A program made the position numbers and the translations under genes. Below, piece after piece: positions 11,680 through 26,723 of a stretch of DNA of 64,000 bases (positions are counted from its first letter, which is position 1; every line of letters begins with the position of its first letter). The notes beneath the pieces are model-generated. The model searched no databases. It was not told where the DNA came from and saw nothing but the letters and a program-made list of their open reading frames with translations. The stretch covers positions 62,001 through 126,000 of the forward strand of contig CM030732.1 in NCBI GenBank assembly GCA_018127085.1. Reading direction: 5' to 3'. The stretch is from Pneumocystis sp. 'macacae' (Eukaryota; Ascomycota; Pneumocystomycetes; Pneumocystales; Pneumocystaceae).

Positions 11680-12010
11680 AATATAATACGAAAGTAGATT
11701 TAATCGAAAATATAAGAGCTTTAAAGATAAAGGGGGAAAACACAAAAATATATAAATTAATTTGCTTTCATTAATGATATAAAATTTACAATAGAAATGC
11801 AACAAAGGCAATGCATTAGATATAGGCACTAATGACCAAGAGATATATATAATGAGTGTTAGATATGAAAAAATGTTATAAATAAGATTTTTGTAAATAA
11901 ATATCAAGCGAAACATGTCCAAATAGATTAGCCGCTCGGTGCAAAAAATATTATTGTTATAGCTGTTATAAATATATTAGGCCGAAAAACGTCTGAAAAC
12001 AATAAATAAA
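11680..12010. other. intergenic spacer, SAC1 promoter side
   Basis: 331 bases between the cyclin stop and the SAC1 start, both genes on the minus strand. It holds the cyclin 3' flank and the SAC1 upstream region. An open frame covers part of it, but it is a hydrophobic, AT-driven extension of SAC1 exon 1 with no homology to Sac1. I see no gene. Base composition is AT-rich, so the GC island has not begun here. Confidence 0.6.
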
Positions 12011-13258
12011 TTAAGTGATCATAGGACTTGCATCTACATAATGAATACGTTGATTTTCATCTGCAGGAGGCGTAGGAAGACCATTCTCATTCCCTTGTAT
12101 GTTTTTAAGTTCTGCAGAAGAATCCGATGCATGATTATTGGTATTAATGCAAAGATGAAACTGAGAGTGTTGACGATGCTTATAATGCGGAGGCGTATGT
12201 GAAGAATCAATTTGTAAAGAGCCGTGTCTTGATGATATAGAGGCAAGATAATCAGAGATAACCTTTTTAACACCAATATGCGAATACTTTTTAAAAAGAA
12301 CATTAGAAACATCACTAAGATGATGCTGAAGCTTATGAATGCACGAAAAAACATCCGACGATGAAACTAAATAATGTTTTTTGGGCTGCAGTATAGATTG
12401 CGCAAGAAAAAGCGAAGCTTCTGCAACTGTACTTGAAAAACATATAAGATCACGATGGAATAACGCAAGTTCTGTAAAAAACTGCGCAAGCAAAACAACC
12501 CTTTCTGGAAAACTAGACTGCATTGTCATCATCTGAAGAAATGTAATCGTCGTCGGATGACCGATCACCCAATTAAGCGTCTTGATTATATGACTTTCCA
12601 TCTGAACAAACATTTCCTCACGATAACTATCACAACACATAGTACAAAGCTCCTTAAGTGTCGGAACACGGTCCTTCAGCTCCTCAAACTTAGCTGCAAT
12701 CCAAAGAGCCGAACATCCAAGAAGTTGGTAATGCTTCTTAAACACTACCCGCTTCGACGTATACCGGTCAATAAGATTCACTGTAAGATAGAGCGTTGTT
12801 GGCTGTAGACGAAACCCAGAATGCACCTCAATGATAAAATCAATCAAGTATGGCCGCATATACCATTCAAGCTCTGGTTGCAGGTCCATCATCTCTGGAT
12901 GCGCCTGTGTCTCTTTCTATTTCATTATTAGTCCTATTCTCACTAAAAATCGTCATCAAATCTTCTGCCACATCCAAAACGACTTGAAAATCAATCTCCA
13001 ATTGCATTCTCTTTCCAATCACCGTACAAAGCCACTCACCTCCATTGTTTTCATATATGCCTCAATTTCTTCCATATATTCCCGTTCAATTAGCCCCAAT
13101 TCCTTGTTCTGCTCCTGAATATCGCTCCACTGCCTCTCTGCACCCTCTATCCGTGCTCCAGAGACCGGTGACAACGGCGTATACGCCTTATGTCTTGTAA
13201 TGCTTGTTTTTGCGTATCTGTCTACTGAAACCCGTCTCTTAACTGCTTGAGACGGCAT
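12011..13258 (-). CDS. G1-type (Cln/Puc1-like) cyclin
   Basis: Cyclin that should activate Cdc28/Cdc2-type CDK around G1/S. The cyclin box lies in the 3' exon: [68 protein letters not shown]. The MRPYLIDF and KFEE signatures, together with the CCDSY block, resemble fungal Cln-type G1 cyclins more than B-type cyclins. The tail after the box ends in a short PT/SP-containing stretch ([12 protein letters not shown]) that could be a degradation or phosphorylation region. Exon 1 ends [11 protein letters not shown], and a 123-base intron (13039-12917) joins it to [16 protein letters not shown] chose the ATG at 13258 (MPSQAVKRR); the frame stays open upstream to about 13370, so an extra 5' exon is possible. 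The gene lies on the AT-to-GC ramp: the 5' exon is richer in GC than the 3' end. Confidence 0.85.
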
Positions 13259-14584
13259 TCTGTCCGTGCTTTGCTCCTGTCTGGGATTCCCGCTTTTAAC
13301 AAACCCTATTGCTTCAAAGCCCCTCTCAATTTCTCCAAACAACTTGTGTTCCTCCGTACAAGATCAATCCAGTCAATAATCTCCGACAGATTCACCAAGA
13401 TTACTGTGTTTCAAGCACTTCTCAGCGTTATACGCGTCTACAGGTCCCTCCACACATCCAGTGAAACTTTATACACCACCTCTGCGCGTCTGCGCCCGTT
13501 AAGATTTTAAGCGGTCGTCGTAAGGGGACGTGTGCACCCAACGCTTAACGCGAGGAGACGAGCCCTTCAGGCACGGTACTGCCGCTTTTCTGTCTTAGAT
13601 TCTCTCAATACAGCAATTTGCCCGAAGTTTCTCTTAAAGCTCTTAGGAATAATGCAGAGCTTCTGCTTGTCTCCTACTAATGCCCTTTTGAGTCCTCATT
13701 AAGCCCAAGTCTATCTGTAAACAATAAATAGACCGTTTTAAAGTAGATTAGAACATGTTTAGAGCTTCTTTAGGTGCAGATTTCAGGGAAATTAGAAGAT
13801 GTGTAAAACAGGCTTTAGACGTATAGAGATTGATAGTTAGAGAGGGGCTAAAAAACAGGCTAAACCATGGACAGAAGCGGGAAAGGAACAGACGGGCACT
13901 AAATAGGTTTATGAAGGCCAAGTAGTACACAACTACGCTGTTTGTGATCAGTGGCTCCTGTATTTGGAAATCAGCGTGCAGAACCATCCCAGAATGATTT
14001 GTTAAGACCCTGCAAAGGCTCTGCAAGATCGCTGCAGGGCTTGCTCCGCATTCTCCACAGCGGTAAGAGCGGTGGAAGCGAAAGTATAGTTTAACGGCCC
14101 CTTGAATGATACTAAACAGAGGTATTCAACACAGGAGTGCAGCAACGTAAGTGCATGGAGATGCAGATGAAATTGTTTATGTACAAAGGGGTAGCAAGGG
14201 AATTAGGAGGGCATGTTTAGTTTGGGGCTGAGCTTTAGTTTGGGTTCTTGAAGATTTAGTTTTAAAGAGCGTTTAAGTGAAAATTAAGTGTTTAATCATT
14301 TCTAAAAATTTCAAAGATTTGCATAAAAAGCCGTTAAAAATCCTAAAAACATCTAAAATGTGCCGAAAGCCAGCAAAGAACCCCAGGACACCGATGCCTG
14401 GTTCCTCGGTGCTTCCGGCTCCTGCTTCACGAAACAAAAGGACAAGCTCTGAATAACATGTAGAATGCGGACATCTAGGATACAAACCAGTTGTGCACTG
14501 CGGGCACCCGCCGCCGGCACCCTTCCCCTGCTACTCCATCGCTCTGCACATCCACACTTCCCCGGGACCACCTGCAGCACTCGC
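13259..14584. other. long intergenic region inside GC island
   Basis: About 1.3 kb between the cyclin 5' end and the syntaxin stop. Composition is intermediate and rises towards 14.5 kb. Several short open frames occur on both strands, but none shows a recognisable domain or plausible exon joins, and high GC alone lengthens chance frames. It must hold the cyclin promoter and the syntaxin 3' end. I see no RNA gene. Confidence 0.5.
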
Positions 14585-15667
14585 TCATGTCTTGCAGACA
14601 CCGCCAACACACTTGATAATAACCACAACCACCGCTACCACAGTAAGCTTCACATTATGACAAACACCCCGACTTACTGATGGCAACAAGAATCAGGATC
14701 GTCAGTCTGTTGCCTGTAAGCACTGTTTGCCTCTGCCCCGCCCACTACTCACCCCAGGCAGTAGCATCGCTTCCGCCGCGCCGCACGTATGTTCTCTATT
14801 GCCTTGTCCTGGTGCTGCAGACCCTGCTCAATGTTCGTGTGGACCGCCTCTGCCTGCTGTGCAATAATCTGCAGCGGCTCATCCTGCTGGTCCACCAGAA
14901 TACTCATCTCGTTAAACAGCTCCGCCAGCTCCCCAATCGTCCGTTCAATCTGCTTGATGTCCTGGTGCCGCTCCTGCACCTCCCGCAGCGCCGTCCGCGC
15001 CTCCCCGTGCCGGTTGCTACGCAACAGCTGCCCCATCAGCCCCCTCCCCCCCTGCTTCTCCCCTTACCGCCTGGCTAAACACCTGCAGCCCCCGCTCATC
15101 CCTCAGCGCCGACTCAATCTCCTCCTGTGTAATCCCCGGGTTCACCGTCTCCATCTGCCGCACTACCCGCTGCCGGTACCGCTCATTAAACGTGCTCTCC
15201 ACCCCCGAGTAGTGCTGGATCGACTCCATAAACTTCTTCCGCATGTTGCTTGTCTGGATCTCCCGGATCTGCACATCTCCCCTCGGCACTGGCCCCCTGT
15301 TCTTCCTCTCCAGCGTCTTGATGTCGTCCCGCACCACATTCTGCATCTGCCGTGTCCGCGCCTTCAGCTCCTCCAGCTTCTCCTGCAGAAACGCCGTCTG
15401 CTCCTCTGAAATCTCGTTCAGCAGCCGCTGGTGCAGCCGCTCAATCTGCTGCACATTCTCCTTGATCTGCAGCACCATCCCCCGCAGCTCCTCAATCTGC
15501 CGTCAGCACTGCCTCCTTCTCCGTCCCCACCTTCTTGAAAAACTCTGGCAGTGTCGTCTTCTGCTCCGTCTCATACTCGATCTGCTTCTCGTCCTCCCTG
15601 CCCGTCAGCCCTGTCTCTTCTCCCCCACTTACTGCTTCTCCTGCTCCCCTTCCTGCCCTCCACCCAT
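14585..15667 (-). CDS. plasma-membrane syntaxin (Sso1/Psy1-type t-SNARE)
   Basis: Qa-SNARE for fusion of secretory vesicles with the plasma membrane. Spliced order: ATG at 15667 (MGGGQEGEQEKQ), a short intron, EDEKQIEYETEQKTTLPEFF, a 34-base intron, then KKIEELRGMVLQIKENVQQ as the Habc domain. The SNARE motif follows: DIKQIERTIGELAELFNEM, with the zero-layer Gln in LVDQQDEPLQ, then HTNIEQGLQHQDKAIENIRA. The last exons form a tail anchor after RRKRCYC, read as LTILILVAITVVVVIIK with the stop at 14585. Two small introns surround this membrane helix. All introns here are about 34-45 bases and GC-rich, unlike the AT-rich introns elsewhere. The gene sits in the middle of the GC island and shares a 315-base divergent promoter with eIF4E. 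Confidence 0.9.
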
Positions 15668-15982
15668 TGTGCAACAACAACACTCTCCGCCTTCGCCGCA
15701 GCCGCCCTAACCCTCCCCGGCGGCAGCCGCTGCTGCAGCAACCCTCTCCATGGCAACCGCACCCGTGCCCTGCTCCGTGGAGGCGCCCACCGCCCGTCCC
15801 GCAGCAGCCCGCATGCACTGCCCAGCCCAGCCCGCACCTCTCTTCCAGCCCTAACCCTAACCCCACATGTGCACCGCCTGCCAACCCAACCCTACCCCAA
15901 CCCGCCAACCAAACCCAGCCCTAACCTAGCCCTGCCCAGCCTGCCTCTGCACAGCTCTCCAGGCGAGCACCGCAGCACACGC
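15668..15982. promoter_or_regulatory. divergent syntaxin/eIF4E promoter, telomere-like tract
   Basis: The 315-base gap between two divergent start codons at the core of the GC island. It is strongly pyrimidine-biased on the plus strand. It contains CCCTAACCCTAACCCC at 15849-15864, another CCCTAA at 15919-15924, and degenerate CCAACCC/CCCTACC units between. These match the TTAGGG telomere unit read on the other strand. CCCTAA (telobox) elements also act as binding sites for Tbf1-like promoter factors in yeasts, so a regulatory role is the conservative reading. Confidence 0.6.
15849..15924. repeat. interstitial CCCTAA telomere-like repeat
   Basis: Two exact tandem CCCTAA units followed by CCCC, then degenerate C-rich repeats and a third CCCTAA at 15919. 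It is short, so it could be a promoter telobox cluster or a relic of telomere DNA. Single telobox copies also occur at 55206-55212 (upstream of Rab5) and 63589-63597 (spacer beyond MIC60). Confidence 0.6.
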
Positions 15983-16739
15983 ATGGCCGACACTGCAGAC
16001 GACACAGCGGACACTGCGCCACAGGCAGTGACGGTCTTCCACGACCCACGCAACTTCACCGTCAAACACCCGCTGATGCACCGGTGGACACTGTGGTTCA
16101 CAAAGCCACTGACGCCCGGCCAGCGCGCAAACACAAGCGACGCATGGGCCGACAGCCTCAAGGAGGTCATCACCTTCGACAGTGTCGAGGAGTTCTGGGG
16201 GTGCGTCGCGCCAGTAGAGGCAGTCTGACAGACAGAATATACAACAACATTGCGAGGGCGTCGCAGCTGCCGCCCAAGAGCGACTACCACCTCTTCAAGA
16301 CGGGGGTCCGGCCCGAGTGGGAGGACAAGCAGAACCAGCGCGGCGGGCGGTGGTCATACAACAACCGGGACCGGCGGTCAGTCAACATAGACGAGCTGTG
16401 GCTGCACATTGTGAGTGGGGCGGGGGGGACTGTGCTGACGGTGCAGATGCTGGCGGCGATTGGGGAGACGCTGGAGAACGAGGGCGACAACGAGGTTATG
16501 GGGGTTGTGGTGAATATCCGCAAGGGCTTTGTGCGGCTGGGGCTGTGGACGCGGTCGACGAGCAACGAGGAGGTGCTGCGGGCGATTGGGTAGGGAGCGG
16601 GGAGGGGGCAGGCTGACGGGGCAGGCGGCGGTTCCGGGAGGCGATGCGGATCCCAGACAAGGAGACGGTGGAGTTCTACTCGCACTCGGACTCGGCACAC
16701 TCGGGGAGCACGCGGGCCAAGTCGCGGATGTACGCGTGA
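15983..16739 (+). CDS. translation initiation factor eIF4E
   Basis: mRNA 5' cap-binding protein. ATG at 15983 opens MADTADD. Core blocks: HPLMHRWTLWFTKP, VEEFWGIYNNIARASQLPPK, DYHLFKTGVRPEWED, GGRWSY, LWLHIMLAAIGETLE and VMGVVVNIRKGF. The cap-stacking tryptophans are present in HRWTLWF and EWED. Three introns of about 35, 36 and 36 bases are needed: after VEEFW, at 16411-16446, and after LRAIG. The last joins RRFREAMRIPDKETVEFYSH and a C-terminus ending KSRMYA. The spliced length, about 215 codons, is normal. The 36-base intron at 16411 has no in-frame stop, so retention would add 12 residues. GC content is extreme for this genome in exons and introns alike. Confidence 0.93.
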
Positions 16740-16917
16740 GCATGGCAGGAGCGGTGCCGCGCGGCGGGCGGATGTGTGGGCGGGACAGAGGGCGGCGGCT
16801 ATAGGACGAGAGTGTGGGGCGAAGGCACAAGACAGCACAAGACGTGTGGGACAGTAGAGGTAGAGTGGGCTGCAGAATGGGTGTAGGGAGATAGGGCAAG
16901 GTGTAGGGTAAGGCAGG

Positions 16918-18659
16918 CTATGGGGGAGGGTGTTTGGACCAGAGCTGTGCAGCGAGGACGGCCATCTCGAGGCTCTGGGAGTAGTTGAGGCGGGGGTCGC
17001 AGAGGGTCGAGTAGGCGGTGGAGAGGTCGTGGTCGCGGACGAGTGTGGAGCCGCCGAGACACTCGGTGACGTCTTCGCCGGTCATCTCGAAGTGGACGCC
17101 GTCGAGGCGGGAGCCGCAGGCCCTGCAGATGTCGAAGCAGAGCTGGAGCTCGAGGAGGATGTGTGAGAAGTGTCTTGTCTTTAGGTGTGGGTGGTGGGTG
17201 GAGAGGAGGGTGTTTCCTGGGGGTGAGGGTGGGGAGGGGGGGAGGGGGGGGATACCATGCATTGGGTCGCTTATGAATATGGCTTTGTGGTTTGAGGACT
17301 GGACGGCGCGGATGTGGAGTGGGAGATATGTTTTTATCTGGGGTTATTTCGGGGCTTGGTGGGCGGGAGGGGGTACCTTGTCGTAGCCGTAGCGGAATAT
17401 GAGGGTGATTTTGCCGGTCTCTCTGTGGGGGTCGAGGATGTCGAGGAGCCGTATGAGTTCGTCGGGGTCCGTTGTGGGGCCTATTTTGACGCCTGGGGCG
17501 GTTAGAGGGTTTCTGGTTTGTTGCAGAGCAACCTATTGGGTTTTCGATGCCTCTAAAGTACTCTACGTGAGCGCTGTCGATGTTCCTGGTTCTGTCGCCT
17601 ATCCATAGGAAATGGGCGCCCAGATTCCACCATTTTGTTTCGTTTGTTTCTGAATCTTTTATTCCCCGGGTCATGGACTCTTCGTAGTCCAGTAGAAGGC
17701 CCTGTTTCGATGTTAGCTGCTGTCTTTGAGGGACAGGGCATGCCTCGTGGCTTGTAAATATGCATGGTTTCTGTGACAGAAGATTGCTATTTATCTCGCT
17801 TGTTTCCTTGAGATTGAGTAAATCAAGAAACCGAGTTTTTTCGGTGCCTGCAAAGCAAGTGCGTTTGCTGTTTTCCAGAGAGATGTCTGGGCTTATCAGT
17901 GCGTATAGGCCAGAAGCACTGGATGACAGTAGCCTGATGTAATTAAGAGTTGCCGAGGAGTGAAAGTACGCTGTTAGCAGTCTTTCCGGGTCAGGCTGTC
18001 GCTCGTCAATAGAATAGCCGTTGACGGATTCTCCTCTGAAAGACAGTATTTCTTTTTTATCTACTATTTCCGTCAATTTTGATCTTGGTCTTAGAGATTA
18101 TAAGGTTTTATGATATAAAAATAAAGCAGATACTTTGCAAATTGCCCAGCTATTCGAGCTACTGTAACCACAGGAGTATTGATGCCTCTATATGTCAAGA
18201 AATACTCTTTTATGCCAATGAATTACCCAAAACCAAAATAATGCTCATTTGCAAAATAACCTTGAGTTTTGAGTTGATCAGATCCTTAAAAGGTGTTACG
18301 AAAAGACAGTAAAGGATTTTCTATACTGGTGTACAAGAACTAAAGGACTCTGCACAGTCTCCTCCTTGAAGCAAAAAGGATTTATGAAGAGCAACATCCT
18401 TAAGTCTCTTTTTTAGTAATAAAATCTAAAAATAAATAATAAGATAAAAATATTTATATAAATACTTCTTCATAATGAACCAAAGGAGGTAGAGATCGCA
18501 ATTTATTTAAAGACTTCAATCAGCTTTAGTTTTTCATAAGTTTGTTCTTACTGTCTTGAGTGCTTCTTGATTTTCGTAAATTACTCCCTGCTGTATAGGT
18601 TTTGACTTCCAAGATGCAGGATTCCAACAATTTTCTGTATTTTCTACTAATTTTTGCAT
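16918..18659 (-). CDS. class II 3-deoxy-7-phosphoheptulonate (DAHP) synthase
   Basis: First enzyme of the shikimate pathway: condenses phosphoenolpyruvate and erythrose 4-phosphate. It is the class II (plant/actinobacterial-like) form, not the Aro3/Aro4 type. The ATG at 18659 gives MQKLVENTENCWNPASWKSK, then after introns LRSLPPLVHYEE, FLLQGGDCAESF, ARIAGQFAKPRS, HSSATLNYIRLL, FTSHEACPV, GAHFLWIGDRTRNIDSAHVE, YFRGIENPIG, ISDPMHGN, GVHFEMTGEDVTECLGG and CDPRLNYSQSLEMAV. All family signatures are intact. Splicing is supported by about seven introns, including a 41-base C-tract intron splitting MHG from NTLLS. The 5' half is AT-rich and the 3' half GC-rich, with the change at about 17.6 kb, inside one continuous gene. 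It is convergent with eIF4E. Confidence 0.92.
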
Positions 18660-21394: not shown

Positions 21395-22530
21395 ATGCTT
21401 TTGATACGTTTTTTCCGTGTGATCCTACCATTGTTGGCAGCTTTTGCTGGTCTTGTCTATATTAGTTTGACAATGGCGGGTGGTTTTAAGAGACACTCCT
21501 TTCTTGATAAAGTTTATCTCTTCAAGGTGTGTTACTTTTATTTCGGAATTTTTTAGTTAATCAATATATTTTCTTTTGTTTAGATTGATGCTACTAATAT
21601 TAAAGCCTATAAGTCTCCAGCAGGGCGTGCGCCTAATACATCACCTGCAGAGCATATCGGGTATGTCTCTCTACACTAGATATTGGCTATATTGTGTGCA
21701 CTCCGTTTCTTGACATATTCATTTTATTTCTTAATATATACTTCTGAAAGTTGAAGTGTATATTTTAGAGCAACTATATTTTCAAAATGTCATTTATAGA
21801 TCCGGAAGGATTAGTACTGTGCATGAAATTCCTTGATTCAATGCCTTTGATTCACTTTTCTGTTTTCTAAACTATTGCTAACTATTTTAGTCTGAGTAAT
21901 AATTATTACTTTTATATGTGGGGGTATTGTCACTCACGTTATCCTATGCGTTTTAAGTATTGTACAAAACCTAAAATTGGCTATTATTTTAACCCCCTTG
22001 GTATTTTGAAGAAATATCTTGTTAAGGAATCAGTAGTTAAAGTTCCATCTAAAACGGGGTCATTCATCGATAAAGTTAAAATAGGTAGCATGATGTAAGT
22101 ACTCTTTTGCGAAATATCACAGAATATTGAGTTCTATTTTGCAATACTGTGGATTTTTTGTATATTCCTTGCTAATAAATATAGTATGACAGGATTCTAT
22201 GCAGCAGGACTAGTTTTTACGGCTTTATTATTGCTTTTTAAATTAGTGGTCGCTATTTTTGATCTTGGTGATAAAGCTCCTAGGATTATTGGGTGTCTTG
22301 CGATGATTTTTACCTTACTTGCTTCAATTTCTTCAACAGCTTTGATTATTGTGATAAAGAGAACAATCAAGAAGGATGCAGGTTATTTGAACCTCAAAGT
22401 TCATTATGGAAAATCATCTTTAATTTATTCATGGGTTGCTGCTTATACTGTTCTTATTGCTTATATTAGTTTACTAATAGCAAACCGACAGCTTCAAAAA
22501 AGAAGACAGGCAACAGAGAAGCTCTATTAA
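21395..22530 (+). CDS. SUR7/PalI-family membrane protein
   Basis: Four-helix plasma-membrane protein related to Sur7 (eisosome/MCC) and PalI. The first exon encodes a helix in MLLIRFFRVILPLLAAFAGL, then a loop with DKVYLFKIDATNIKAY. After an unusually long intron the conserved extracellular motif appears: LSNNYYFYMWGYCHSRYP. Helices 2-4 lie in the last exon (GLVFTALLLLFKLVVAIFDL, IIGCLAMIFTLLASISSTAL, LIYSWVAAYTVLIAYISLL). The cytosolic tail is short and basic (KKRRQATEKLY). The 230-base intron (21661-21890) is five times the local norm. The family is assigned from topology and the W-G-Y-C motif, not from strong identity. Confidence 0.75.
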
Positions 22531-23983
22531 TATGGAATATCATTCTTCTATTAAAATATGATGAAAGTTTTACTATTTTTATTAAATATTTCTATCTTTA
22601 GTTAGCTATTTTTATATATTTTTATTTATTGTCGTTTTAATTTTTGTAAAATTAGAAAAAAGAAAAAAAATGTATTTTTTTCCACTAACACTGTTTTTGC
22701 TTTTATAAATAGTTTTCTATGAGTTATTAAAATCCTGTTTTTATGTAAACTTTTCTTATTTATCTTTTTTAAACCATGCATTTGAAAATAATATTAATTA
22801 TATTTTTATTTAACTTAGCACATATTTTATATCATTTATTTTTTTGATTTAAATAAATTTTATAGCAAAAATATCTTTAAAATTAATATCGTAAAAATTA
22901 AAAGTTTAAATATTCAGTAAAATTCTCTTTTAAAGTTTATAAAATATACAACATTTTATATTTTTCTAGATTAAAAATGTTATTAAATTTACTTTATTTA
23001 GACTATAAAATTTTAAAATATAATTGCGTCGTTTTTATATTATTTGAGATTTTATATAAACATATTAAATGTTCAATTGATAGAAACATATTAAATACTA
23101 AAAGTAATTTAATAATAGTCTTACAAAACATAATTTAGAAAAGATAAAAATTCTTAAATATTACAATGGTTACAAAATGTTTTAATAAAAAATACATATT
23201 TAAAACAAATACTAAATCAAAATTATATTGACAAAAAATTTAGATAGAAATTCAAAGTATAAAAGTTTGTAATATTTAAAACCATTATTTAAATATTAAA
23301 AAAATATTTATATTTTTTCAGAATAAGGCTAAAAACATCTTTATTTAAATTTTCAACAATTTTAAATTAGATTTCTACTTATTTATTAGTATAATTGCAA
23401 ATATATATATTTTAAAATATTAAATTTCTTTAAAATCAGCAACTGCTAGTTAATCACATATTTCAGAAACAGCTTCTAGTTGATTCTTTTTTTATAATTC
23501 TCATCACATAAAAATTCCAGAAAATTACGATATTTAAGACATACCTCATTATATTCTTAATATAAAAAAGCTTAACCATAAATAATTATATATTTTATTT
23601 GAACAATATTTATCTAAAGATATAATTTAATAGCCGATATTCAGTTTATTTCTTTGAAATTAACTAAATTATTAATAAGTGATTCTTTAATATCATATTT
23701 TTAATGTTTAATTTTTTTCCGAAAAATCAAGATTATTTTAAAAACAATTATAATTACTTTGAAATCATTATTAAAGTTGAGACTTTTATATATATATTAA
23801 TAGAACCTTTTATATAATATCAAAAATATTTAAATATAATGTATATTTAAATTATATCAAAATGTCATAAAAACATCATCAAAATGTAAAATCAATATAT
23901 GTTTTACTTAATTTTCAAAAATCTGACCCATAAATAAATGATAATATATAACTAAAAAGACTATGATTCAAAAATTATTTTAA
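22531..23983. other. long AT-rich gene-free spacer
   Basis: About 1.45 kb between the convergent SUR7-like and FPGS genes. It is among the most AT-rich DNA in the window, with long A/T runs and no open frame of interest on either strand. No tRNA, repeat unit or palindrome recognised. It is long for a convergent gap in this compact region. Confidence 0.6.
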
Positions 23984-25617
23984 TCAAAATTTAAATTTAT
24001 CAAGAACAGTTAAAAAGCCTCCAATTAGATGCAAACTTCCAGTTACAAATACATCAATATCAAATAATGTAGCCTGAGAACGAACTAAGCTTACAGTATC
24101 CTCTATATTGTCTATAACATTAATTAATGCACTATTACCATCCAACCGAATCCAACAATCTCTTAAGCTATATTGTATTTTAAGATTTTTAATTTGTTTA
24201 GTATCAGAGTTAATATTTACAAGATCTAAATGTTTAAGATCATAAATATAAATATAAACTAAGAATCACCTTCATCATACGTCCCATCTTTCCATGTGAC
24301 ATTCGTTGGAAATACAATCATATAAAAAGGATTATCGCCTATTTTTTCAATTATTGCATTATATAAAGATTCTAATAACAGTATAGCATCTCGAGTTTGT
24401 TGATTAAATATCAATATAGATTTTCTAGGCGAATTATTTGATAAGAAAATAGAATTTGCATACCAAATAACAGCCTCTTTTATACTCTCAATAGTATGTG
24501 CACCATCCAAATACCAAGAAATATTATTTTCTTTACGCAATTGACATCTTCCAGGCCAAAATGCATTTTCAAGACCCGCTTTTATAATATCAAATGCAGT
24601 ATATAATGAATTCAAAGAAGGAATATTCAGATAAGGTAAATGATAAGATACAAGCGCAAAAGCAAGTGATGCATTAATATATTGAAAATCGCCTGATAAA
24701 CCAAGTTTAATTTTTTTTAAATCTGGATTAATAGTAATAACAGAAAAAAGTGCCTTTATTTAAGCCTATTTCTGGAAAATCAACAAAATTTACCTTGCGT
24801 TCAGATGCCCTTTTTTTTAATACATTTAAAGCAGGTATCGATTGTTCTACAGTTAACGCAGGAACATTTTTTTTAAATATTCCTCCTTTATGCCATGAAA
24901 TTTTTTCAATAGTATTACCTAATATTGGAACATGATCTATTCCTAAACTAGTAATACCAGTTACAGTAGGATTTTGAATAATATTTGTTGAATCATATTC
25001 CCCTCCAATTCCTGTCTCCATAATTAAAGTGTCTATTTTTTCTGAAATAAATACATGCCATGACATAAGTGTTAAATAGCGGAAGTAAGACGGTTTAATG
25101 ATAGGATCCAGTTTTTTTTCAATAGCAGTTTTTTCTAAACGATCCCAAACTTCAAAAAAATACTTTGCAAATAATGTTTCAGAAATAGGAATCCCATTAA
25201 TCCTAATTCTCTCTCGCACAGCTACTAAATGAGGTGATGTATACATTCCAAATCGTATAGACTTTCTATATCTATCTCTCAATTGTTCTAAAATAGATGA
25301 TATAAATGCACATGTAGAGCCCTTCCCCTTTGTTCCTGCAATATGAATAACATTTAACTTGTGAATATCATCGATCTAAATTGCATTTTGTATACTTTTC
25401 TTGGGTAAGATGATTAGTTTTACCTTATATCCTATTCTATGTAACCATTCTATCATTTGAGGTAATGATTGCTTATTCAAATCCTCTTTTGAGCTCGAAA
25501 TAGTCTTCAGTACATGGGAATTTGTTTGCAATGTGTTTAAAGCATTTATAGCATCCTTTATTTGTCAAATCGTTAAATATTAAAAAATCAACTAACTTTA
25601 TATGATCGAGACATCAT
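23984..25617 (-). CDS. folylpolyglutamate synthase
   Basis: Adds glutamates to folates, retaining them in cytosol and mitochondria. The start MMSRSYK is spliced to DAINALNTLQTNSHVLK. The ATP P-loop is in NVIHIAGTKGKGSTCAFIS. Further blocks: FGMYTSPHLVAVRERIRING, DTLIMETGIGGEYDSTN, ITSLGIDHVPILGNTIEKI, WHKGGIFKKNVPAL and YLDGAHTIES (the FPGS His/Asp region). The C-terminus reads DVFVTGSLHLIGGFLTVLDK, ending at 23984. Spliced length is near 480 codons, normal for the cytosolic/mitochondrial enzyme. Pneumocystis relies on de novo folate synthesis, so this gene belongs to a pathway of medical interest; that statement rests on prior knowledge of the genus. Confidence 0.92.
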
Positions 25618-26723
25618 ATATATTGATTTTGAAAAAAACAGTAGCACTTAAAACATTTTTAGATCATTTTAAAACGCAGAAGAACTTGTTTTAATTATGT
25701 ATTAAATTAAATAAAATAGAAAATATTTTTTAATAAGGTTGAATCGACATTAGTGTTAATAAATACAATACATGAAATTTTTTTTAAAATCATATTTCTT
25801 AAAGAAAATAATTTAAACTTTAAACATTTGTAAACAAATATTAGAAAAAATATATTCTATATTCTTATATAAATATATATTTTTTCTAATAAAAGATATA
25901 TAAAAGAAAATCAATTTAATGAATAAAAATATAAAATAAATCAAAAATTTGTATTATTAAAATAATATTTTAATGATTCTCAAATATATTAATAAGTTAA
26001 AATAAATTCAAGTTTTAATTATTTCAAAAAATAAAATATCTAATTATTATTAATTTTGCAAGCTATATAAAATATAAATATTGAAAATAAACGATATAAT
26101 ATTTGATATTTTTAAAAAATTCAAAATATATATTAAAAAAAATATAATTCAAATATTTTTAATTTTTTTTTAATAAAATAAAAAGCATTCATAATAATAA
26201 TAATAATTATTCATATATTTTTAGACCATCTTTTTAAGTTCATATGTATTTTTAAAATTTATAAATTCAAATTTTTTATAAAAATATTCCAAAAATAAAT
26301 AATTTGATCATATTAAAAACTTTTATAGTCACACGTTTCAGAATAGACTAAACAAATTTTTACAATTTTTAATTTCAAAGACATACCAAGAATTAGCAAG
26401 ATTTGTAAAATAATACTCTTTATAAAATCTTCCAAATTATTGAAAACATCCACAGCATAAAGATAACATTAAGACCGTATAATAATACAACCTAATTTCA
26501 TATTTATATATACTAATCTATACTGAGTAAAAAACTATCAAACCAAGTATTAAACACAAAAGAATGGATATTTAAAATACGCTAAATTTAAATCTCTTGA
26601 ATGCTTTTAACGAAAATTTTAATCCTAAACCAAATAACACCACAAAAAACAAATTCAAACACAATATAAGAATAAATGAATTTCAAAAACAAGAAAAAAT
26701 CAAATCCCAGTAATTCCAGGAAG
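25618..26723. other. AT-rich gene-free spacer
   Basis: About 1.1 kb of very AT-rich DNA between the FPGS start and the small coiled-coil gene. Long poly-A/T stretches and ATAATAATAAT near 26190. No open frame with domain character. It holds the FPGS promoter and the 3' end of the next minus-strand gene, whose terminal exon may reach to about 26600. Confidence 0.5.

What the first reader, a model, noticed from the sequence alone, without database searches (positions are those of the whole stretch)
12000..18000. A 6-kb GC-rich island in a very AT-rich genome
Composition climbs from AT-rich background at 12 kb to a GC peak at about 15-17 kb (42 of 60 G/C at 15001-15060, against 9 of 60 at 23041-23100) and falls again by 18 kb. 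Genes inside (cyclin, syntaxin, eIF4E, DAHP synthase) are ordinary fungal genes with the same intron style. Introns and intergenic DNA are GC-rich too, so codon selection and gene transfer explain it poorly. Smooth shoulders fit GC-biased gene conversion at a long-lived recombination hotspot.
Basis: partly seen in the sequence, partly recalled or inferred. Interest (0 to 1): 0.85.

Follow-up and report, generated by a model that had tools for sequence, protein, structure and literature searches.

The report
Strand-polarised GC islands at probable recombination hotspots
A very AT-rich fungus of macaques carries dozens of evenly spaced GC-rich islands; in every one examined the two halves are C-rich and G-rich in mirror image, which looks like a lasting footprint of DNA breaks repaired at the same places for a very long time.

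Summary
The island is real: the best 1-kb window is 65.8% GC, against 26.3% (sd 3.4) outside the region. The organism is Pneumocystis sp. 'macacae'. The island is not unique: G/C-run searches give 56 interior clusters on 16 contigs by my grouping. I read 25 of them besides the window's; 30 are unread. All 26 have one design: a plateau near 64% GC, about 4.3 kb wide, smooth shoulders, and GC skew negative left and positive right of the midpoint (26 of 26). In the outer shoulders C alone rises on the left, G alone on the right. Third-codon-position skew has the sign of the arm in 26 of 27 exons, whatever the gene direction. Transcription, transfer and codon selection do not explain this. Best reading: long-lived meiotic break hotspots with GC-biased conversion, plus a strand-specific repair bias that standard gBGC does not predict. 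A SPO11-type domain is encoded. No recombination, polymorphism or sister-species DNA was available, so the hotspot claim is inferred.

The parts
12001..18400 (.). GC-rich island including shoulders
   Evidence: 200-bp GC profile; 1-kb peak 0.658 at 15772-16771
14316..17836 (.). island core (GC above 45% in 500-bp smoothing), 3.5 kb wide
14316..16177 (.). left arm: C-rich on the + strand (GC skew -0.36 over 1.5 kb)
16178..17836 (.). right arm: G-rich on the + strand (GC skew +0.36 over 1.5 kb)
16076..16177 (.). island midpoint to point of skew reversal: inferred break zone, inside eIF4E exon 1
   Evidence: the break is inference
12014..12916 (-). cyclin exon (Cyclin_N, Cyclin_C), GC3 0.38, in the left shoulder
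14588..15667 (-). syntaxin (plasma-membrane t-SNARE, PMAC_000902), GC3 0.79-0.86 in the two exons measured; ends of the gene inferred
15983..16739 (+). eIF4E, four exons, GC3 0.79, 0.88, 0.87 and 0.92; three GC-rich introns of 35-36 nt (16201-16235, 16411-16446, 16590-16624)
16921..17532 (-). class-II DAHP synthase, two Pfam-matched exons (the rest of the gene, to about 18.1 kb, is inferred); - strand on the right arm, third-position skew still follows the arm
15675..15982 (.). divergent intergenic stretch between syntaxin and eIF4E, 69% GC, with telomere-like CCCTAACCCTAACCCC near 15850
17219..17252 (+). G-run tract on the right arm

Best explanation
The island is one of about 56 or more fixed recombination hotspots of Pneumocystis macacae, probably meiotic SPO11 break sites used at the same place over evolutionary time. 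Repair of breaks near the centre has two effects. (1) GC-biased gene conversion raises GC over about 2.5 kb on each side, from 26-27% to an apparent plateau near 64%. (2) A strand-specific repair bias enriches C on the strand that would form the 3' single-stranded tail of a central break (top strand on the left, bottom on the right), and therefore G on the strand that is resected and resynthesised. Shown: the composition profile, its recurrence, the mirror-image skew, its independence of gene direction and its confinement to the island. Inferred: that the cause is double-strand-break repair, that it is meiotic, and that the sites are old. My preferred source for component 2 is DNA synthesis in the extending D-loop (mutagenesis of the displaced strand, or strand-biased mismatch correction), because damage to the 3' tail itself should leave that strand poorer in C, not richer. 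That last step is a guess.
For: Same design at unlinked places: 20 islands and 5 more, chosen by G/C runs alone; with the window's, 26 of 26 are skew-negative left and skew-positive right of the GC midpoint. Mean width of the 26 is 4.33 kb, sd 0.86. Folded onto the tail strand, ln(C/G) is 0.01 at 3-3.5 kb, 0.73 at 1-1.5 kb and 0.25 at 0-0.5 kb, with ln(A/T) between -0.10 and 0.10. Third codon positions, pooled top-strand skew: left arm -0.45 (6 exons pointing away from the centre) and -0.55 (7 pointing toward it); right arm +0.45 (9 away) and +0.50 (5 toward); 26 of 27 exons have the sign of their arm. GC-rich introns and intergenic DNA. Ordinary genes inside. TP6A_N (SPO11-type) domain at C12:219.9 kb. 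Human hotspots: no strand asymmetry in the central 100 bp either side, strong asymmetry in the flanking 2 kb, off-centre mutation peaks at 700-800 bp (PMC7615360, section 4 read). Cluster spacing more even than random: CV 0.56 against 0.85, sd 0.10, P 0.001. Amino-acid changes specific to P. macacae: eIF4E 4 GC-raising, 0 lowering, 1 neutral; syntaxin 8, 3 and 2.
Against: No recombination, DSB or polymorphism data. Standard gBGC does not choose between G:C and C:G, so it does not predict the skew. From the text of PMC7615360 I infer that ssDNA damage depletes C and A on the 3' tail strand; here that strand is C-rich, the opposite sign. No sister-species DNA could be read, so age and conservation are untested. 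Syntaxin GARP/FYMINK is 0.92 in P. macacae, 0.74 in its closest relative and 0.46 in P. murina, but 1.00 and 0.81 in the two outgroup fungi, so the value is high only within the genus, and the island may be weaker or absent in relatives. The mirror polarity is also that of a bidirectional replication origin. Gene direction is not random about the midpoints (32 of 48 coding-like ORFs point away). The chosen control gene had only one relative outside this species, so the amino-acid result has no control.
Confidence: 0.64

Rival explanations
1. Islands are fixed bidirectional replication origins. Leading-strand asymmetry gives G-rich leading strands on both sides, and something at origins raises GC.
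For: The sign of the skew is that of leading-strand skew (negative left, positive right). Even spacing, mean about 106 kb.
Against: Replication skew should extend over the replicon. Here it is gone by 3-3.5 kb from the midpoint on average, and in the window the 44 kb to the right has skew -0.05, the same as the 11 kb to the left, although single 4-kb blocks reach -0.17. Origins are not known (recalled) to raise GC from 27% to 64%.
Confidence: 0.12
2. Divergent transcription with R-loops (GC skew downstream of promoters, as at human CpG islands) sets the skew and the GC content.
For: Among 48 coding-like ORFs in 20 islands 32 point away from the midpoint and 16 toward it. The window's midpoint lies close to a divergent gene pair.
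Against: Third-position skew is the same in exons that point toward the centre (-0.55 left, +0.50 right) as in those that point away (-0.45, +0.45). DAHP synthase, antisense on the right arm, has top-strand third-position skew +0.73 and +0.77.
Confidence: 0.06
3. Foreign DNA, contamination or assembly error.
For: Extreme composition contrast.
Against: Genes inside are Pneumocystis orthologues: eIF4E 95-96% identical to P. oryctolagi, canis and murina; syntaxin 100% over 94% of the query to PMAC_000902. eIF4E and syntaxin carry neighbouring locus tags in P. murina (PNEG_03112, PNEG_03113). Smooth shoulders, and 26 islands of one design. Read coverage was not available.
Confidence: 0.02
4. Selection on codon usage or on GC-rich gene content (highly expressed genes).
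For: Some island genes are highly expressed types (core histone, ribosomal L6 and S9).
Against: Introns, intergenic DNA and mirror-image skew; other island genes are of many kinds (squalene synthase, UCH, PIN, USP).
Confidence: 0.02
5. Mitotic (not meiotic) recombination or fragile sites, for example breaks at telomere-like repeats or at GCATAYA arrays, with the same repair footprint.
For: CCCTAACC in 19 of 26 islands, 90 against 2.6 expected; GCATACA in 21 of 26, 154 against 12.3 expected.
Against: The window's island has no GCATAYA at all, and 7 of 26 lack CCCTAACC. The telomere-like repeats may be a product of the C/G polarity: their orientation follows the arm (left + 94, left - 0, right + 7, right - 43).
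Confidence: 0.14

Closest known systems
GC-biased gene conversion islands at recombination hotspots (for example GC-extreme regions of gerbils: PMC7403616, passages on 'GC skew' seen; PMC7574485, title and start of abstract seen in the listing)
   Same: Local GC far above the genome, affecting silent and amino-acid sites of ordinary genes; attributed to recombination.
   Different: Here a kilobase-scale unit repeated dozens of times in an 8.3-Mb fungal genome, with mirror-image strand skew. In PMC7403616 'GC skew' means GC excess, not strand skew.
Strand-asymmetric mutagenesis at human meiotic hotspots (Hinch et al. 2023, PMC7615360: section 4 read; passages and legends seen)
   Same: Asymmetry confined to about 2 kb on each side, none at the very centre, off-centre maximum.
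   Different: There it is a mutation-rate signal over 25,440 hotspots; here it is base composition visible at each island read. The sign, as I read the text, is opposite to damage of the 3' tail.
Replication-origin skew jumps (human N-domains, bacterial origins; recalled)
   Same: Negative-to-positive jump.
   Different: Confined to about 3 kb each side and coupled to a GC rise.
SkewR / R-loop CpG-island promoters (recalled)
   Same: GC-rich DNA with GC skew around promoters.
   Different: Skew is independent of gene direction.
Sparse DSB hotspots of Schizosaccharomyces pombe, with short DNA motifs that activate them (recalled)
   Same: Same subphylum; widely spaced hotspots; motif arrays in many islands.
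   Different: I recall no S. pombe GC islands and did not search for them; motif function untested here.

Membership tests
GC-biased gene conversion island | Elevated GC at coding, intronic and intergenic sites alike | tested here: met
   GC3 0.79-0.92 in the four eIF4E exons, 0.79 and 0.86 in two syntaxin exons, 0.70 and 0.81 in two DAHPS exons; introns 0.63-0.77; intergenic 0.69
GC-biased gene conversion island | AT-to-GC substitution or fixation excess | tested here: inconclusive
   Amino-acid changes only: eIF4E 4 raising, 0 lowering; syntaxin 8 raising, 3 lowering; no control gene
GC-biased gene conversion island | Coincides with high recombination rate | not testable with these tools
   No population or cross data held
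GC-biased gene conversion island | No preference between G and C on a given strand | tested here: not met
   ln(C/G) up to 0.73 on the tail strand: gBGC alone is not enough, a second process is needed
Meiotic DSB hotspot | Organism encodes SPO11 | tested here: met
   PF04406 (TP6A_N, shared with archaeal topoisomerase VI A) at C12:219.9 kb, 52.3 bits, cut-off 26; that it is SPO11 is inferred from the domain in a eukaryote
Meiotic DSB hotspot | SPO11 cuts or DMC1/RAD51 binding at the centre | not testable with these tools
   no such data
Meiotic DSB hotspot | Kilobase-scale, two-sided, strand-polarised footprint around a centre | tested here: met
   26 of 26 islands read
Replication origin | Skew that persists over the replicon | tested here: not met
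   ln(C/G) 0.01 at 3-3.5 kb; 44 kb to the right of the window's island -0.05
R-loop promoter island | G-rich non-template strand downstream of the promoter | tested here: not met
   Toward-pointing exons keep the skew of the arm (12 exons)
Pneumocystis centromere | One per chromosome; GC on average 3.9% lower than the rest in P. murina and P. carinii (PMC10327204, passage seen) | tested here: not met
   2-5 S-run clusters on each of 15 contigs and 1 on C12; GC far above the mean

The most novel reading that the evidence does not exclude
The genome of P. macacae carries a readable fossil map of its break sites. Each island records, in one sequence, the position of a permanent break centre and the polarity of its repair, through a strand-specific base preference (C on the 3'-tail strand) that acts beside gBGC and that I have not found described as a base-composition signature. 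Hotspots would be fixed by local DNA, evenly spaced, and would have been used for millions of years without the self-destruction expected of hotspots.
Probability: 0.42. Interest if true: 0.9.

Novelty: new variant of a known kind. Interest (0 to 1): 0.8.

Why it matters
If the islands are break sites, the hotspots of an organism that cannot be cultured (PMC7940399, start of abstract seen) could be mapped to within a few hundred bases from sequence alone. The mirror-image skew would make a hidden step of break repair (which strand is favoured, and over what distance) measurable from base composition at single loci. It would also give a fungal test case for the hotspot paradox, and an example of a non-selective process that rewrites housekeeping proteins (for example K-to-R changes in eIF4E).

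Tried and rejected
Foreign DNA and contamination: rejected by orthology and neighbouring locus tags. Transcription and R-loops: rejected by third-position skew in both gene orientations, although genes do point away more often (32 of 48 ORFs). Replication origin: not excluded, but weakened by lack of long-range skew. Centromere: too many islands and the wrong GC sign. A shared DNA motif as the cause: GCATAYA arrays and telomere-like repeats are enriched, but the window has none of the former and 7 of 26 islands none of the latter, so neither is necessary. An array does not guarantee a full island: of two places picked by array alone, L031 is an island missed by the G/C-run search (its right end is cut off by the 4-kb stretch) and L030 only a hump of up to 42%. 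G:T mismatch glycosylase as the enzyme: the UDG superfamily is present at two places, but the domain search does not tell TDG from UNG. Control gene for the amino-acid test: failed, one partial relative in P. canis besides the species' own protein. An error of mine: eIF4E exon 4 was read one base out of frame; one search corrects it (GC3 0.92, skew +0.39 instead of 0.53 and +0.10), and the pooled value for that class stays +0.45.

Pneumocystis with recombination hotspot (6 of 6 listed), with biased gene conversion (4 of 4 listed), and with GC content, genome assembly and chromosome (25 of 29 listed) showed, by title and start of abstract, no report of these islands. Two broader searches (15 of 49 listed, 12 of 40 listed) returned mostly or only papers without the word Pneumocystis, so they say little. 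The main text of the P. macacae genome paper has 0 occurrences of 'GC content', 'GC-rich', 'G+C' and 'isochore' by the tool's count (passages seen); the 2016 genome paper has 2 of 'GC content', both on the whole genome, and 0 of 'GC-rich' and 'isochore' (passages seen). Supplements and subscription papers were not searched, so this is not proof of absence. Recalled prior work on nucleotide skew at mouse hotspots could not be checked: searches (15 of 22 listed; 12 of 14 listed) showed no title on it, and apart from PMC7615360 and PMC7403616 I opened none of those papers.
Full report
Observation. The window is 64 kb of contig 13 (62001-126000) of an 8.27-Mb, 19-contig genome. Its GC content is about 26% except at 12.0-18.4 kb, where 200-bp bins climb to 0.72. 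The best 1-kb window is 0.658; outside the region the mean is 0.263, sd 0.034, maximum 0.362. The organism is Pneumocystis sp. 'macacae': syntaxin matches PMAC_000902 at 100% over 94% of the query.

Genes. The four named genes are right: cyclin and class-II DAHP synthase by Pfam, eIF4E and syntaxin by homology. eIF4E has three introns of 35-36 nt with GC 0.63, 0.72 and 0.77. The divergent intergenic stretch between syntaxin and eIF4E is 69% GC. GC3 is 0.38 in cyclin on the shoulder, 0.79 and 0.86 in two syntaxin exons, 0.79-0.92 in the four eIF4E exons, and 0.70 and 0.81 in two DAHP synthase exons. Coding, intronic and intergenic DNA are all affected, so codon selection does not explain it.

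The island is one of many. Patterns of 13 or more uninterrupted G/C bases (and 22 with up to 2 mismatches) were searched over the whole genome. By my grouping they form 56 interior clusters on 16 contigs, 39 of them with two or more entries and 17 resting on one. I left out contig ends, simple G or C runs and the small contig C19. The listings were cut at about 100 rows, and one further island (L031, C1:560-564 kb) was missed by the runs and found by another motif, so the count is rough and probably low. I fetched 20 of these places, the first in contig order, and then 5 more on C10-C16, all chosen by G/C runs only; 30 of the 56 remain unread.

One design. All 25, and the window's island, show a plateau near 64% GC; mean width of the 26 is 4.33 kb, sd 0.86. 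The stretch for L029 begins inside its left shoulder. All 26 have negative GC skew left of the GC midpoint and positive skew right of it. The midpoint was defined by GC, not by skew. In bins centred on the midpoints of the first 21, 0 of 21 are positive at -1500 to -1250 and 21 of 21 at +750 to +1000. At -2000 to -1750 C is 0.33 while G is 0.17, near background; at +1750 to +2000 G is 0.33 and C 0.19. Folded on the strand that would be the 3' tail of a central break, ln(C/G) is 0.01 at 3-3.5 kb, 0.73 at 1-1.5 kb and 0.25 in the central 0.5 kb; ln(A/T) stays between -0.10 and 0.10. So two components are superposed: a symmetric push to G+C, and a strand-specific preference for C over G. For scale, background 1-kb skews in the window have sd 0.11 and reach -0.30 and +0.20; the weight lies in the recurrence.

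Not transcription. Of 30 ORFs scanned with Pfam 23 matched a family; without the 4 from the window it is 20 of 26, ordinary genes on both strands of the islands. Over their matched ranges, plus eIF4E, syntaxin, cyclin and DAHP synthase, pooled top-strand third-position skew is -0.45 and -0.55 on left arms for exons that point away from (6) and toward (7) the centre, and +0.45 and +0.50 on right arms (9 and 5) (with eIF4E exon 4 corrected). Of 27 exons 26 have the sign of their arm; the exception is eIF4E exon 1, centred 16 bp from the midpoint (-0.19). Three are near zero (UCH -0.09, ribosomal L6 +0.07, ribosomal S9 +0.03). Against this, genes do point away from the midpoint more often (32 of 48 coding-like ORFs), so centres may tend to lie at promoters.

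Not an ordinary replication skew. On average the skew is gone by 3-3.5 kb. In the window the 44 kb to the right and the 11 kb to the left both have skew -0.05, with single 4-kb blocks down to -0.17. Origins remain a rival because the sign is right.

Mechanism. A central double-strand break with two-sided resection gives a centre, two arms of one to a few kilobases, and opposite strand polarity. Human hotspots show this geometry in mutation data: no asymmetry within 100 bp of the centre, strong asymmetry in the flanking 2 kb, off-centre peaks at 700-800 bp (PMC7615360, section 4 read). A SPO11-type domain is encoded. gBGC would raise GC; from the composition I estimate a symmetric log preference of about 1.6-1.7 within 1 kb of the midpoint relative to background. 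The C/G polarity is not predicted by gBGC. As I read PMC7615360, damage to the 3' tail should deplete C and A there, whereas here the tail strand is C-rich; events on the displaced strand of an extending D-loop, or strand-biased mismatch correction, would have the right sign. This step is inference.

Age. Amino-acid changes at columns where the sister sequences agree and P. macacae differs lean to GC at the first two codon positions: eIF4E 4 raising, 0 lowering, 1 neutral (6 sister sequences); syntaxin 8, 3 and 2 (4 sister sequences; four partial relatives left out). Syntaxin GARP/FYMINK is 0.92 here (1.02 for the deposited protein), 0.74 in the closest relative, 0.62, 0.55 and 0.46 in three others (the last P. 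murina), 0.57 in P. carinii (partial); three short or misaligned relatives gave 0.88, 1.15 and 1.42, and two outgroup fungi 1.00 and 0.81. So the value is high within the genus only, and there is no control gene. The reported divergence of P. macacae and P. jirovecii assemblies is about 16% (PMC7940399, passage), while a rise from 27% to 64% GC needs change at a large share of sites; so either the islands are older than the split or substitution in them is fast. No sister DNA was available to decide.

Spacing. On 14 contigs of known length 52 clusters are more evenly spaced than random (CV 0.56 against 0.85, sd 0.10, P 0.001). Incomplete detection could affect this.

Motifs. Against a first-order Markov expectation two short sequences stand out in the 26 islands: GCATACA, 154 against 12.3, in 21 islands, often in arrays with 11-bp spacing; and the telomere-like CCCTAACC, 90 against 2.6, in 19. 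Simpler words are also in excess, less strongly (for example CTGCTGC, 177 against 50.8). Three-unit GCATAYA arrays form 32 places in the part of the listing shown (100 of 126 hits, C1 to C10), 24 of them within 4 kb of a G/C cluster, where about 5% are expected by area. Interstitial CCCTAACCCTAAC forms 24 places by my grouping, 19 of them near a cluster. Telomere-like octamers follow the arm: left + 94, left - 0, right + 7, right - 43 (overlapping hits, not independent). Their role is unknown.

Verdict. The gBGC-hotspot reading is the best available and is partly supported; the strand polarity is the new element. Direct recombination evidence is missing.

Noticed in passing
L004, L005, L006, L008, L011, L015, L016, L017, L020, L021, L022, L028, L031 (for example L022 6825-7015): Arrays of GCATAYA with a regular 11-bp spacing, part of a dispersed repeat (124 bp at 91% between L004 and L015; 154 bp at 81% between L005 and L011), mostly inside GC islands but absent from the window's island.
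   Followed up: partly
window 15850-15926 and 18 other islands: Interstitial telomere-like CCCTAACC repeats whose orientation follows the arm of the island.
   Followed up: partly
L030 (C10:255500-259499): A place with a GCATAYA array but only a GC hump of up to 42%, with skew negative left and mostly positive right: perhaps a young or decaying island.
   Followed up: partly
L014, about 794-849 bp right of the skew centre: Cluster of four CACGTG palindromes within 55 bp.
   Followed up: no
contig ends, for example C3:305-330, C13:6509-6533, C16:10593-10616: A nearly identical G/C-only repeat of about 22 bp near several contig ends.
   Followed up: no
window 22501-24000 and 25501-26500: Very AT-rich stretches (1-kb GC 0.155-0.158) to the right of the island.
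   Followed up: no
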